DNA of 34,532 nt from Candidatus Blautia avicola (GTDB lineage Bacteria > Bacillota > Clostridia > Lachnospirales > Lachnospiraceae), in the NCBI GenBank assembly GCA_019120515.1, contig DWUY01000290.1, positions 1 to 34,532 on the forward strand, read 5' to 3'. A program made the translations under genes and the position numbers. The notes under the pieces are model-generated. The model was not told where the DNA came from. It was given only the letters and a program-made list of their open reading frames with translations, and searched no databases. Below, in pieces: positions 1,200-32,763 of this stretch. Every line of letters begins with the position of its first letter. Position 1 is the stretch's first letter.

Positions 1200-1215
1200 T
1201 TTAAGAACGAATACG

Positions 1216-1259
1216 TTAAGAAGGGGGACTTCCAGTTGATCGGAAGTCCCCCTTCTTAA
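1216..1259. terminator. Bidirectional hairpin terminator between convergent genes
   Basis: A perfect 18-bp stem (1216-1233 with 1242-1259) encloses an 8-nt loop and is GC-rich in its centre (GGGGGACTTCC / GGAAGTCCCCC). It lies 16 nt after the stop of the 738 gene and 46 nt beyond the stop of the DUF1934 gene on the other strand. The T-tract is weak on both sides, but length and position fit a shared terminator. Confidence 0.8.
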
Positions 1260-1304
1260 TATATTTCTATTATAAATCTACCCTCAGTGTACATTATGTC
1301 AGGA

Positions 1305-6527: not shown

Positions 6528-6716
6528 CTTCCCGGGCTTATCCAATCGTTTCGGCTTCGCCTCACGATTGCTGCGATAACGCACAGCTCGCTGCTTCGCT
6601 GCTCGCTGTACTTGCCCGGTAAATGGTGCTGCGTGCCAGTGGCACGCGTTCAGCACGGACCGTAGCGGAGCGAAGACCTGCTCGTGCAAGCACGGCAGCC
6701 GCTTCCCGGGCTTATC
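6528..6716. repeat. GC-rich multi-hairpin intergenic repeat, copy 1
   Basis: A ~190-bp block is bounded by an exact 15-bp direct repeat CTTCCCGGGCTTATC (6528-6542 and 6702-6716). Inside are hairpins CAATCGT/ACGATTG (6543-6549/6564-6570), a two-part stem GTGCTG-CGTGCC/GGCACG-CAGCAC (6626-6637/6641-6656), and CGTGC/GCACG (6683-6694). The end next to the gntR terminator shares CGTGCAAGCACGGCAG and a TTTCCGGGC.TATCGCA-like string with a second region at 17286-17416. No credible ORF is present. Its right part overlaps the gerAA ribosome binding region by two bases. Confidence 0.75.
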
Positions 6717-6720
6717 GCAC

Positions 6721-6754
6721 AAAAAGAGCGCCGCCAGTGTTGGTGCGCTCTTTT
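6721..6754 (-). terminator. Intrinsic terminator of ispE-gntR
   Basis: On the minus strand, AAAAGAGCGC pairs with GCGCTCTTTT, with a further three pairs inside, and the stem is followed by a T run (CTTTTTGTG). It lies about 22 nt downstream of the gntR stop. Confidence 0.85.
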
Positions 6755-10672: not shown

Positions 10673-11416
10673 ATGTTTCGTTTTATCATTATCTGTATCA
10701 TTGTGATCGGGTATCTGATCTTATCCATCCCCATACTTTTCGGCGAATGGATCCTGGGGAAATTTGATATGAGAAAAAAGGATATCAGCTCTCTGCGGAT
10801 CATCCAGGCAGTATTCCGGCTGATCCTGAAAGTTACCGGCGCGGACATCACCATCATCGGCCATGAAAAAGTTCCAACAGACCAGGCGGTTTTATATATC
10901 GGCAACCACAGAAGCTTTTTTGATATCCTTCTGACTTATGTCCTCTGTCCGGACACCACAGGCTATGTTGCCAAAAAAGAAATGGAGCCTATCCCTCTTC
11001 TTTCCCACTGGATGCGGTATCTCCACTGTCTCTTTCTGAACCGGAAAGATATCAAAGAAGGTCTGAAGACCATACTCACCGCTATAGAAGAAGTGAAAAA
11101 CGGCATATCCATCTGCATCTTTCCGGAAGGCACCAGAAACAAAGGAGACAGCGAACTGGAACTTCTGCCCTTCCACGAAGGAAGCTTTAAGATCGCTACC
11201 AAAACCGGATGTCCGGTAATCCCTATGGCCATCCACAATTCTGCGGAGATCTTTGAAGCACACTTTCCAAAGATCCGCCCCTGCAAGGTGGTAGTAGAAT
11301 ACGGAGATCCCATCTATCCCGATCAGCTCTCAAAAGAGGACAAAAAACATTTAGGCCAGTATACCCGGAACGTGATCCTGCAAATGCTGGAAAAACACCA
11401 GACAGCAGCAGCATAA
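10673..11416 (+). CDS. plsC: 1-acyl-sn-glycerol-3-phosphate acyltransferase
   Basis: PlsC acylates lysophosphatidic acid to phosphatidic acid at the membrane, a core phospholipid step. I choose ATG 10673 (247 aa) over the tracked TTG at 10664 because AAGGA at 10659-10663 abuts the TTG but sits 9 nt before the ATG. An N-terminal hydrophobic helix (about residues 3-22) anchors it. The catalytic HX4D motif is NHRSFFD, and the substrate-binding motif is FPEGTRNKG; a third conserved block is GCPVIPMAIH. Length is normal. It is monocistronic, with its own promoter and a leader palindrome, and ends at the dispersed hairpin element shared with the convergent gene. Confidence 0.95.
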   Translation: MFRFIIICIIVIGYLILSIPILFGEWILGKFDMRKKDISSLRIIQAVFRLILKVTGADITIIGHEKVPTDQAVLYIGNHRSFFDILLTYVLCPDTTGYVAKKEMEPIPLLSHWMRYLHCLFLNRKDIKEGLKTILTAIEEVKNGISICIFPEGTRNKGDSELELLPFHEGSFKIATKTGCPVIPMAIHNSAEIFEAHFPKIRPCKVVVEYGDPIYPDQLSKEDKKHLGQYTRNVILQMLEKHQTAAA

Positions 11417-11420
11417 AAAA

Positions 11421-11576
11421 GAAGGGAGCTGTCCCATTTATCATATTTCAGGAATATTTATACATTTTATGCCAATTTACCGGGCATCGCTTTAAGACCA
11501 CAGGCGCAAAGCAGCGCAGACTGAACAGCAAAATATATAAATCTTCTTGATTTTGATTAATGGGACAGTTCCCTTC
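11421..11576. repeat. Dispersed long-hairpin element, copy A (likely bidirectional terminator)
   Basis: This 156-bp element fills the space between two convergent genes. Outer arms 11421-11443 and 11554-11576 pair over 23 positions with one mismatch and one G-T pair. Further imperfect pairing continues inward (TTCAGGAATATTTATA-type arms), and a central hairpin lies near GCTTTAAG...GCAAAGC. T-rich DNA follows it on the plus strand and A6 precedes it, as expected of a two-way terminator. The 116-nt core (11441-11556) is the reverse complement of the core at 28320-28435, with 95 of 116 positions identical and no gaps in my hand alignment. Confidence 0.85.
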
Positions 11577-11584
11577 CTTTTCTT

Positions 11585-17285: not shown

Positions 17286-17416
17286 TCTTTCCCAGGGATC
17301 GGCCCCGTCCGATCCCCGGGATACTCGGTCAGCTCACGGCACAGCCGTTCGCTGTCCGTTGCCCGGCAAATGCCTGCCCGTGCAAGCACGGCAGGCGCTT
17401 TCCGGGCGTATCGCAT
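17286..17416. repeat. GC-rich multi-hairpin intergenic repeat, copy 2
   Basis: This region makes up most of the 302-bp gap between the L,D-transpeptidase and aminotransferase genes. Hairpins: GGGATCGG/CCGATCCC (17295-17302/17309-17316), ACGGC/GCCGT (17336-17340/17344-17348) and GCCTGCC-c-GTGC with GCACGGCAGGC (17372-17395). The end nearest the terminator is related to copy 1 at 6528-6716: both carry CGTGCAAGCACGGCAG, then CGCTTYCCGGGC-TATCGCA, then A5 of the terminator, plus TGCCCGGYAAAT. Copy 1 has about 50 extra bp. No credible ORF. Confidence 0.65.
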
Positions 17417-17447
17417 AAAAAGCGGCGCCGTGAGTCTTCACAGCGCC
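17417..17447 (-). terminator. Intrinsic terminator of the aminotransferase gene
   Basis: On the minus strand GGCGCTGTGA pairs with TCACGGCGCC (one mismatch, 4-nt loop), followed by GCTTTTTATG. It lies about 48 nt beyond the stop at 17495. Confidence 0.8.
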
Positions 17448-25922: not shown

Positions 25923-28299
25923 ACTGGCAGTGCTGATCATCGCTCTGGTGATCCTCCTGCCTTCTCTGGCCATGATGTTTATCAGGCCGCATTATATCAG
26001 CCGTCAGAAAGAAGACGGACAGATTTCCTACTCAAATACAGACTTAATGGACCAGCTTGTAAAAGATACTTATGTCCTCTACGCGGAGGAATATCAGAGA
26101 GAACATGGAAGCGACGTGACGCCCTTTGAGATCTTTTTCCAGAGAGATACCTCCGTAGAGGAAAACACCCCAGAGGAAGATACCTCGGATAAAGAAGCCT
26201 CCGGCGACTCTGCTTCCGACAGCCCTTCCCCGGAAAACAGCCAGACCCAGGATCCGGCATCTGGAGAAAACGCCTCCGATGCTGCATCTTCAGAAGAATC
26301 TACCAGTGATCCATCTGAGGAGACGGCCTCTTTAGAAGAAACCTCCGAAGAGACTTATGAAGATGATATAAGCAGCGTTGCCTATGCTTTCCAGGACAAT
26401 ATGTACAGCGAATGGAGAGATGATTTCTCTGATATCCGCTCTTTTATTGAATATGAGGTGCTGGACGGAAAGGGGACTACTCTGGACACCAACCAGTCTT
26501 TGGCAGATTCCCAGGAATCTCTCTATAATTCCCTGAGCAATATCCAGACCAATTCCGTATTGCACGCAGACAGCGGATACGCCTTTGTGGCTGTGATCAA
26601 ATATGGAAAAAAGGGAAATATTGAATCCACGACTTTTCTTACCCATGAAAGAGATAACGCCTCTCAGGCTTTAAACGAGCTGGCCCGGTCAGATCCCGGA
26701 GAATATCTCCGTGACTACTATTATTATTCCGGCGCTTTCCAGCCTCCTCAGGACAGGATCTACTGCTTCGCCATGACCCAGACGGCTCTGGAATCTTATT
26801 CTTCCGATTATGATCCTTCCATTTTGTATGCCGACGGCTACAGCACAGGGGCTGATCTGGTGGTCCTTTTTATGACATTTGTGGGATTTGTATGTGCCGC
26901 CGCTCTTCTCCTTCCTTTTATAAAGGCCTTAGAGACCGGAAATGAAAAAATTTTTTCCTACCCCTTTGAGCCGGTATGCCTGATCGCTCTTTGTGTGATC
27001 AGTGTTGCAACCAGCATAACAGCCAATCCCGGCACTCTGGATCATCAGTCTATCCGAAGTGTGCTCATAAGCATAGGTCTCTATGAAAAAGCGGCTACAG
27101 TGATCCAATACCTGTGGGGACTTTTAGGCTGGGTACTGATCTTTGCCGTATGTTACTGGGCGGCAGCCTGTTTCCGGCATATTTTCACCATGGGGCCGAA
27201 AGAATATCTCCATAAGCGAGTCCTGACCTACCGTTTCTGGCCCTGGATCACCAAATGGTGCCGCCGGATCTATCAGGGACTCCTTCATGTAGATCTCCGG
27301 GACAATGCTTCCCGGATACTGTTAAAACTGGTCCTTATCAACTTTATCATACTGGGCTTTATCAGCCTTCTATGGTTCTGGGGACTGGCGGCTCTGATCG
27401 TTTACTCCGTGATCCTCTTCTTCCTTCTGCGAAAATATGTGCGGAAGGTCCAGGATCAGTATCAGCTTCTCCTTCAGGCCACCAATGAATTGGCCCAGGG
27501 AAATCTAAACGGAACCATACCGGAAGACCTGGGCGTCTTTGAACCTTTCCGGGAAGAGATCGATAAGATCCGCGCCGGTTTCCGCAAGGCGGTAGACGAG
27601 GAAGTAAAAAGTACCAGGATGAAGACCGACCTGATCACCAATGTGTCTCATGACCTGAAAACTCCCCTTACTGCCATTATTACTTATGTGGATCTGTTAA
27701 AAGAGCCTGATCTTCCCAGGGAAACCCAGGAGAAATATATCCGGATCCTGGATCAGAAAGCCAACCGTCTGAAGCTGCTCATCGAAGACCTCTTCGAGAT
27801 CAGCAAGGCTACCAGCAAAACTGTACAGCTTCATATCGTAGATGTGGACATTGTCAGTCTTCTCCGCCAGGTAAAGCTGGAACTTCAGGACAAGATCGAT
27901 GCCACAGACCTGTCCTTCCGCTGGCAGTTTCCGGAAGAAAAAGTAATCCTTCCTCTGGATTCCCAGCGCACTTACCGGGTATTTGAAAATCTGCTGGTCA
28001 ACATTACAAAATATGCTATGCCTCATACAAGGGTGTACATCAACATGGAAGATACGGAAAATCATGTGAAGATCTCTATGAAGAATATCTCAGCTACAGA
28101 GCTGACTTTTAACCCCAGCGAGATCACCGAACGTTTTGTAAGAGGAGACGTCTCCAGAAATACCGAGGGAAGCGGTCTGGGCCTGGCTATTGCCAAAAGC
28201 TTTACCGAACTTCAGGGCGGCAGGCTGGAAGTTTTCACAGACGCGGATCTTTTCACAGTGGAGATCACCTTTTTAAAGACCTCCAAAAAGACGGATTAA
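25894..28299 (+). CDS. Membrane sensor histidine kinase with acidic Ser/Glu-rich ectodomain
   Basis: The 801-residue partner of the preceding regulator starts at TTG 25894, inside the regulator gene, with GGTGGTG upstream. One N-terminal helix (11-30) leads to a ~290-residue extracytoplasmic region with a low-complexity S/E/D/P-rich stretch at about 87-158. Four to five more helices follow (about 319-343, 357-377, 405-428, 476-512). Then come a HAMP-like linker, HisKA with His586 in NVSHDLKTPLTA, and HATPase with ENLLVNITKYA and SGLGLAIAKS. The usual DxGxG G1 box reads KNISATEL instead, a variant I know from several clostridial kinases. The signal is unknown. Confidence 0.9.
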   Translation: MDTKSKNNHKLAVLIIALVILLPSLAMMFIRPHYISRQKEDGQISYSNTDLMDQLVKDTYVLYAEEYQREHGSDVTPFEIFFQRDTSVEENTPEEDTSDKEASGDSASDSPSPENSQTQDPASGENASDAASSEESTSDPSEETASLEETSEETYEDDISSVAYAFQDNMYSEWRDDFSDIRSFIEYEVLDGKGTTLDTNQSLADSQESLYNSLSNIQTNSVLHADSGYAFVAVIKYGKKGNIESTTFLTHERDNASQALNELARSDPGEYLRDYYYYSGAFQPPQDRIYCFAMTQTALESYSSDYDPSILYADGYSTGADLVVLFMTFVGFVCAAALLLPFIKALETGNEKIFSYPFEPVCLIALCVISVATSITANPGTLDHQSIRSVLISIGLYEKAATVIQYLWGLLGWVLIFAVCYWAAACFRHIFTMGPKEYLHKRVLTYRFWPWITKWCRRIYQGLLHVDLRDNASRILLKLVLINFIILGFISLLWFWGLAALIVYSVILFFLLRKYVRKVQDQYQLLLQATNELAQGNLNGTIPEDLGVFEPFREEIDKIRAGFRKAVDEEVKSTRMKTDLITNVSHDLKTPLTAIITYVDLLKEPDLPRETQEKYIRILDQKANRLKLLIEDLFEISKATSKTVQLHIVDVDIVSLLRQVKLELQDKIDATDLSFRWQFPEEKVILPLDSQRTYRVFENLLVNITKYAMPHTRVYINMEDTENHVKISMKNISATELTFNPSEITERFVRGDVSRNTEGSGLGLAIAKSFTELQGGRLEVFTDADLFTVEITFLKTSKKTD

Positions 28300-28302
28300 C
28301 AA

Positions 28303-28452
28303 AGAAGCTGCCGCATTATTCAAAGTTAAGAACATTTATACATTTTACTGCTCAGTCTGCGCAGCTTTGAGCCTATGGTCTCAAAGCTATGCTCGACAAA
28401 TCCGAATAAAATCTGTAAATATTCTTGAACTATGAGTAATGCGGCAGCTTCT
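28303..28452. repeat. Dispersed long-hairpin element, copy B (likely bidirectional terminator)
   Basis: This 150-bp element fills the gap between the kinase gene and the convergent hydrolase gene. Outer arms 28303-28318 and 28437-28452 pair perfectly over 16 bp (AGAAGCTGCCGCATTA). Imperfect pairing continues inward (TCAAAGTTAAGAACATTTA against its partner), and the centre has a perfect 8-bp hairpin GCTTTGAG/CTCAAAGC. The 116-nt core (28320-28435) matches copy A in reverse orientation. A T-rich stretch follows on the plus strand. Confidence 0.85.
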
Positions 28453-28458
28453 ATATTT

Positions 28459-32649: not shown

Positions 32650-32690
32650 CGGACAATGCCTCTACCAGATACTTCAAAGGAGTCTCCTAT

Positions 32691-32750
32691 AAAAAAAGAC
32701 TGCCTTACCCGGAGCCTTTCAAAAAGCTTCCGGATAAGGCAGTCTTCTTT
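32691..32750. terminator. Bidirectional terminator between rsmF-like gene and spoVG
   Basis: AAGACTGCCTTA (from 32696) pairs with TAAGGCAGTCTT (to 32746); the stem extends inward with one mismatch through CCGG/CCGG. T-rich sequence follows on plus (CTTCTTTCTTTTTC), and A7 at 32691-32697 gives T7 on minus. It is shared by the convergent methyltransferase gene and spoVG. Confidence 0.85.
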
Positions 32751-32763
32751 CTTTTTCATACGC

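What the first reader, a model, noticed from the sequence alone, without database searches (positions are those of the whole stretch)
11421..11576. Dispersed ~150-bp long-hairpin element between convergent genes (copy A), with covarying outer stem
Seen directly: this element and the one at 28303-28452 have a 116-nt core of identical length, related as reverse complements, with 95/116 identity and no gaps by hand alignment. Outside the core the arms differ in sequence but still pair within each copy. Four stem positions show compensatory changes: 11432-11565 T-A vs 28311-28444 C-G; 11434-11563 C-G vs 28313-28442 G-C; 11426-11571 G-C vs 28305-28450 A-T; 11424-11573 G-C vs 28303-28452 A-T. Both copies sit exactly between two convergent genes. 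This suggests a mobile or multiplied structured element working as a two-way terminator, or a structured RNA, beyond an ordinary terminator. I do not know whether it has been described.
Basis: partly seen in the sequence, partly recalled or inferred. Interest (0 to 1): 0.85.

Follow-up and report, generated by a model that had tools for sequence, protein, structure and literature searches.

The report
Mobile hairpin that replaces terminator loops
The two hairpins belong to a family of about 40 copies per genome in poultry-gut Blautia bacteria: a small gene-less mobile DNA piece that appears to drop into existing stop-transcription hairpins, replacing the top of the hairpin but keeping its base, which explains why each copy has different but still matching outer arms.

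Summary
The element is a dispersed family: about 40 places in this draft genome and many in six related Blautia genomes, with a sister subfamily in two other Blautia and a few copies in one other genus. Best explanation: a MITE-like non-autonomous element of the IS1182/IS1272 type that inserts into existing hairpins, mostly intrinsic terminators, deletes the top of the stem-loop and keeps its base, without target duplication. Evidence: empty orthologous sites carry ordinary terminators whose stem base is the filled site's outer stem; ends (GGRGCTGTCGCATTA) resemble Blautia IS1182 ends (GGGGCTGTCGC); convergent sites are enriched about six-fold; copies nest inside copies. So much of the outer-stem covariation is inherited from the target. 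The resulting long hairpin is expected to terminate both ways (not measured). Not explained: a ~45-nt cap is conserved across subfamilies and two genera while the stems below change completely yet stay paired, and arms also covary at orthologous sites. No strand preference, which argues against a one-strand RNA. No Rfam, phage, plasmid or IMG/VR match. I judge it a new variant of a known kind.

The parts
11416..11424 (+). Copy A, left outer stem and A-tract (AAAAAGAAG), read as the retained base of the target hairpin
   Evidence: Pairs with 11573-11581; differs from copy B and from other copies; flank pairing test over 94 copies z 6.4
11425..11571 (+). Copy A, element proper: left end GGAGCTGTCCCATT to right end AATGGGACAGTTCC
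   Evidence: Profile match L001:1505-1650; ends as in the family alignment
11479..11521 (+). Copy A, conserved cap (ACCGGGCATC..AGCGCAGAC) with inner hairpin 11489-11496 / 11505-11512
   Evidence: Alignments A2 and A3; pair counts
11573..11581 (+). Copy A, right outer stem and T-tract, read as retained target
   Evidence: Pairs with 11416-11424
28306..28450 (-). Copy B, element proper, opposite orientation
   Evidence: Profile match L021:1499-1643 minus
28355..28397 (-). Copy B, conserved cap
   Evidence: Pattern at L021:1573-1590 minus; alignment A2
28298..28305 (+). Copy B, left outer stem (plus-strand view), partly paired with 28451-28458
   Evidence: Folding and inverted repeat I4
28451..28458 (+). 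Copy B, right outer flank
1209..1267 (.). Comparator, not part of the family: ordinary long hairpin in another convergent gap of this window
   Evidence: Inverted repeat I11 and fold of 1200-1304, -39.0 kcal/mol
32692..32750 (.). Comparator, not part of the family: ordinary long hairpin with A-tract and T-rich tail between convergent genes
   Evidence: Inverted repeat I6 and fold of 32650-32763, -34.4 kcal/mol

Best explanation
A MITE-like, non-autonomous mobile element of about 147 bp with IS1182-family ends (GGRGCTGTCGCATTA). An IS1182-type transposase, not detected in most high-copy genomes today, moved it into existing DNA hairpins, mostly intrinsic terminators at gene 3' ends. As reported for IS1272/TnSha1, insertion deletes the upper stem and loop, keeps the base of the stem and makes no target duplication. 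Target stem plus element arms then form one long hairpin, often with the target's A-tract and T-tract, which goes on working as a terminator, in both directions at convergent sites. Afterwards the arms stay paired, by selection or by template-switch correction of a near-palindrome, and inner parts are deleted, exchanged between copies, or hit by further insertions. Shown: dispersal, site polymorphism, terminators at empty sites, retained stem, convergent bias, no strand bias, shared end sequence. Inferred: the transposase, the transposition chemistry, termination, and the cause of arm maintenance.
For: About 40 places in the own genome and many in six relatives, absent in seven congeners. Empty sites: L068 versus L278 (stem base ACAGGACCGGGAAGG / CCTTCCCGGTCCTGT retained, hairpin top replaced), L010 versus L205 in the sister genome, L083 versus L186; copy A site holds other terminator-like hairpins in G005, G006, G019 and copy B site in G019. 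Flanks of the same copy pair beyond chance, z 6.4, 0 of 2000 shuffles. Convergent sites OR 6.0, p 1.6e-9. Nested copies. Blautia IS1182 elements with ends GGGGCTGTCGG or GGGGCTGTCGC(A/T) and, in one of six copies, clearly paired flanks; G012 copy L347 shares GCTGTCGCTTTAA with the IS end. Precedent for hairpin targeting with partial hairpin deletion and no target duplication: PMC4923244, PMC5678879.
Against: No IS1182 transposase (PF13751) found in G005, G009, G016, G018 or G019; no tblastn match in 1.55 Mb of G018. The IS elements do not contain the cap and match only about 11 end bases. The ends diverge more (17-21%) than the core (4.7%), the reverse of what end recognition alone predicts. 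Variant copies keep the cap without the ends. Two or three empty sites are clean; others are rearranged. Only about half of the copies have a run of 4 A (left) or 4 T (right). Termination was not measured.
Confidence: 0.7

Rival explanations
1. The cap is a functional structured nucleic acid (an RNA, or a DNA hairpin read by a protein). Stems may drift as long as they pair; cap bases may not. The multiplied Blautia form would be a mobile derivative of an older functional hairpin.
For: Cap 46 nt identical at two loci in each of two species of genus g102 on unrelated perfect 25-28 bp stems; one orthologous pair has compensatory stem changes and no cap change. Covariation: 52 cells changed on both sides versus 7.3 shuffled and at most 13 slid. 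Variant stems in Blautia.
Against: No strand preference; very narrow range; no Rfam relative; orthologues L013/L258 and L023/L273 changed in the core and not in the arms; gene conversion among copies and template-switch correction can mimic both signals.
Confidence: 0.17
2. Ordinary mobile repeat without hairpin targeting: it inserts anywhere, and only insertions downstream of genes survive, some being co-opted as terminators.
For: Pneumococcal BOX, RUP, SPRITE and IS elements are also enriched between convergent genes, and the authors read that as tolerance (PMC3049150).
Against: Does not predict that outer flanks of the same copy pair (z 6.4), nor that empty sites are hairpins whose stems continue in the filled site, nor the nesting.
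Confidence: 0.08
3. Not mobile: locally evolved bidirectional terminators kept alike by gene conversion between copies.
For: Core differences between orthologues with identical arms look like conversion (L013/L258, L023/L273); sites A and B are shared by several species.
Against: Presence/absence at orthologous sites and nested copies; common IS-like ends at unrelated sites; tens of matches in some Blautia and none in others.
Confidence: 0.05

Closest known systems
IS1272 and TnSha1 (IS1182 family, staphylococci; PMC5678879, PMC4923244)
   Same: Insertion into hairpins, often terminators; deletion of part or all of the stem-loop; no target duplication; ends pair
   Different: They are an IS with a transposase gene and a transposon carrying it; here about 150 bp without a gene, high copy number, and a conserved cap
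SPRITE, RUP and BOX repeats of Streptococcus pneumoniae (PMC3049150)
   Same: Short palindromic intergenic repeats enriched between convergent genes; SPRITE resembles a rho-independent terminator
   Different: Different host; this element keeps the target stem as its own outer stem; no such target pairing is described in the passages read
ERIC and Correia elements (from general knowledge and PMC3049150 background)
   Same: About 100-150 bp intergenic palindromes, probable MITEs that act when transcribed
   Different: Other taxa; the general MITE definition quoted there includes target duplications, which were not seen here
IS1182-family insertion sequences of Blautia (L031, L121, L125)
   Same: End sequence GGGGCTGTCGC/G; flanks sometimes paired (L139)
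   Different: Carry a transposase of about 540-600 aa; no cap

Membership tests
MITE (non-autonomous IS derivative) | Short, multicopy, no coding gene | tested here: met
   About 150 bp; 79 matches at about 40 places in one genome; too short for a transposase
MITE (non-autonomous IS derivative) | Terminal inverted repeats shared with an autonomous IS of the host lineage | tested here: inconclusive
   About 11 end bases shared with Blautia IS1182 elements, longer in L347; no IS1182 transposase in five high-copy genomes
MITE (non-autonomous IS derivative) | Insertion polymorphism at orthologous sites | tested here: met
   L010/L205, L068/L278, L083/L186
IS1272-type hairpin-replacing transposition | Target is an inverted repeat | tested here: met
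   Empty sites are hairpins; flank pairing z 6.4
IS1272-type hairpin-replacing transposition | Deletion of part or all of the hairpin, no target duplication | tested here: met
   Seen at L010 and L068 by alignment; few sites, and no recent strain pair
IS1272-type hairpin-replacing transposition | Catalysed by an IS1182-family transposase | not testable with these tools
   Needs a mobility assay
Intrinsic (rho-independent) terminator, bidirectional | Stable hairpin followed by a T-tract on the transcribed strand | tested here: inconclusive
   54% of copies have at least 4 A left or 4 T right within 13 nt, 19% both; the simple scan found no hit at copy A because its loop limit is 8 nt
Intrinsic (rho-independent) terminator, bidirectional | Transcripts end there | not testable with these tools
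   No RNA data
Known Rfam RNA family | Score at or above the gathering cut-off | tested here: not met
   Window: none at gathering scores. Copy A, L288 and L291 were searched at relaxed E-values and no listed match reached its gathering score

The most novel reading that the evidence does not exclude
The cap is an undescribed recognition module, shared by two Lachnospiraceae genera, that sits on stems of free sequence. It may be what a transposase or a host protein reads when the hairpin is extruded, and the Blautia amplification would show an element that spreads by swapping the tops of cellular hairpins, so that terminators become a renewable habitat for mobile DNA.
Probability: 0.22. Interest if true: 0.78.

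Novelty: new variant of a known kind. Interest (0 to 1): 0.56.

Why it matters
Outer-stem covariation between repeat copies is usually taken as evidence for a selected RNA structure. Here much of it is explained by insertion into hairpins that were already there, a trap for covariation-based RNA discovery. It would extend hairpin-replacing transposition from staphylococcal IS1272 to gene-less elements in gut anaerobes and show how terminators can be rebuilt by mobile DNA. The conserved cap on freely changing stems is a concrete, testable candidate for structure-guided recognition.

Tried and rejected
Rfam at gathering and relaxed thresholds: only sub-threshold matches, mostly generic microRNA-type hairpins. 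Phages, plasmids and IMG/VR for the cap: nothing meaningful. An autonomous parent with the cap inside: IS1182 loci scored at most 14.9 bits, E 0.11, taken as chance. A one-strand regulatory RNA: no orientation bias. A mobile unit confined to the core, with all arms taken from targets: not favoured, because the best-preserved copies share ends GGGGCTGTCGCATTA at unrelated sites and L010's arms do not come from its empty site. The scan of the class used stricter filters, so weak distant relatives may be missed. Single matches in Merdivicinus (L077) and Mediterraneibacter (L079) metagenome-assembled genomes were not counted as host range: L077's flanks are 89% and 98% identical to a Blautia locus, which suggests binning error; L079 was not checked. 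Gene calls are a home-made codon model, good enough for orientation only.

Full report
OBSERVATION. Copies A and B are present as described. The best ungapped 116-nt match is 95/116, the four quoted pairs are right, and both fold far below shuffled energies. They are the longest inverted-repeat pair in the window and both lie between convergent genes. The window's two other convergent gaps (1200-1304 and 32650-32763) hold ordinary strong hairpins without the element, so in this window the element sits where a terminator would otherwise be.

A DISPERSED FAMILY. A search of the draft genome gave 79 matches at about 40 separate places. An aligned and oriented set of 30 shows an asymmetric cap, long arms and ends near GGRGCTGTCGCATTA. 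A pattern scan of one genome per species found 66 stretches, nearly all in poultry-gut Blautia (An81, merdipullorum, stercorigallinarum, pullistercoris, stercoripullorum and the A106 bin). Among 20 Blautia genomes the matches run to tens in G000, G005, G006, G009, G016, G018 and G019, are fewer or weaker in six others and absent in seven. From contig lengths, G006 corresponds to An81, G018 to B. stercorigallinarum, G005 to B. merdipullorum and G016 to the A106 bin. G003 and G012 carry a diverged subfamily with many copies. Shorter forms of 42-87 bp with the same ends and no cap also occur.

TARGET SITES. For 97 distinct full-length copies, genes were called with a simple codon model: 30 sites are convergent, 49 tandem, 4 divergent, the rest unresolved. 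Against the other gene pairs of the same loci the convergent odds ratio is 6.0 (p 1.6e-9) and the divergent one 0.35 (p 0.039); tandem copies lie a median 40 bp from the end of the upstream gene. Some copies come from the same site in related species, so they are not all independent. The 8 nt just outside the element pair with each other more often than when right flanks are dealt to other copies (4.54 versus 3.67, z 6.4, 0 of 2000). Individual outer stems can be long and unique, for example ACAGGACCGGGAAGGA / TCCTTCCCGGTCCTGT in L068.

EMPTY SITES. At L068 the orthologue in G018 (L278) is a plain terminator-like hairpin, AAACAGAACCGGGAAAGTT...AACTTCCCGGCCCTGTTTTT. The filled site keeps that stem base and has the element in place of the top; the flank alignments run through the stem on both sides. 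At L010 the sister genome G018 (flanks 94-98%) has AAAGAAAAGGGAGACAG-TATATAAG-CTGTCTCCTTTTCTTTTT, and the filled site keeps the AAAAGAAAAGG / CCTTTCTTT base. L083/L186 is a third case, with only the base at one side clearly retained. At copy A's site, G006 has GACCGCATAATTCTGCGGTCTTTTT, and G005 and G019 a different long hairpin, while G018, G016 and G009 hold the same insertion in altered form. Copy B's site in G019 (L173) holds GATTTATAAAAGGAGCC...GGCTCCTTTTATAAATC. Copies also sit inside copies (L017/L052, L024, L073), as expected if hairpins are the target. Not every site is clean: L016, L030 and L073 are complex or partly deleted.

LIKELY MOVER. Blautia genomes hold IS1182-family elements (PF13751; NF033551 at 288.8 bits against a cut-off of 270 for L031). 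Their ends are GGGGCTGTCGG in G007 (six copies, one with paired flanks AAAAGTAA / TTACTTTT) and GGGGCTGTCGCACTA and GGGGCTGTCGCTTTA in G003, the latter also in G012. These resemble the element's ends, and a G012 copy (L347) carries GAAGCTGTCGCTTTAA. IS1272 and TnSha1 of this family are reported to insert into hairpins, often terminators, with partial or whole deletion of the stem-loop and no target duplication (PMC4923244; PMC5678879). The transposase is not seen in G005, G009, G016, G018 or G019, so the mover is inferred.

WHAT A PLAIN MITE DOES NOT EXPLAIN. Over 94 copies the core diverges 4.7% from consensus but the ends 17-21%. Variant copies keep the cap on unrelated, well-paired stems (L113, L116, L062, L018). 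A 35-sequence alignment, chosen for diversity, has 52 cells changed on both sides against 7.3 in shuffles and at most 13 when slid. One other genus of the family (g102) has three copies in each of two species, on unrelated stems mostly of 25-28 perfect pairs; the cap is identical over 46 nt at two of the loci in both species, and one orthologous pair shows compensatory stem changes and no cap change. A scan of 391 genomes of the class with the cap model found no others at E 0.01, under stricter filters. Possible causes are a function of the cap, recognition of the extruded hairpin, gene conversion among copies, or template-switch correction of the arms. Against strict constraint on each copy, orthologues L013/L258 and L023/L273 changed in the core and not in the arms. 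In 21 orthologous pairs the shared outer-arm base pairs show 20 double and 13 single changes, a count biased towards retained pairs and possibly inflated by repeated insertion at one site. There is no strand preference (24/25).

CONCLUSION. The element most likely is a small gene-less mobile palindrome that spreads by replacing the tops of hairpins, chiefly terminators, and leaves a longer hairpin that can still end transcription from both sides. Termination, transposase identity and the role of the cap remain untested. My text searches found no description of this family, but only an open-access subset was searched, so novelty is provisional.

Noticed in passing
window 6660-6726 and 17356-17422: A second dispersed repeat (67 nt, 82% alike; CCCGTGCAAGCACGGCAG hairpin): 11 further matches in 1.55 Mb of G018. 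Not identified.
   Followed up: partly
L003, L008, L011, L112, L147, L148 near the element: A third repeat, CAAATGGACATGC..GCATGTCCGCTTGGCTCGTTGC..GCGGGAATAAAA: 24 matches in 1.55 Mb of G018, often inserted in or beside these hairpins.
   Followed up: partly
L028 1448-1618, L029 1489-1659, L117 874-1064: A GATGCTTGCATCGGGG hairpin interrupts copies of the element, apparently another small insertion.
   Followed up: no
L125 237-2132 and L124: Each end of the IS1182 element carries its own small hairpin (GGGGCTGTCGCACTAAATAATTAGTGCGCAGCCTC), similar to the short cap-less forms of the repeat.
   Followed up: no
L100 977-1026, L101 938-979, L102 949-998, L109 824-873: Short cap-less hairpins of 42-50 bp with the same ends; L100 looks like an internal deletion between AATAT repeats, and all resemble plain terminators.
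   Followed up: partly
L152 and L153 (copy A site in G005 and G019): A different long hairpin, GGAGCATTCAACAGA..TCTGTTGAATGCTCC, at the same convergent site, with changes on both arms between the two species.
   Followed up: no
L077 619-763: A match in a Merdivicinus metagenome-assembled genome has flanks 89% and 98% identical to a Blautia locus, probably a binning error.
   Followed up: partly
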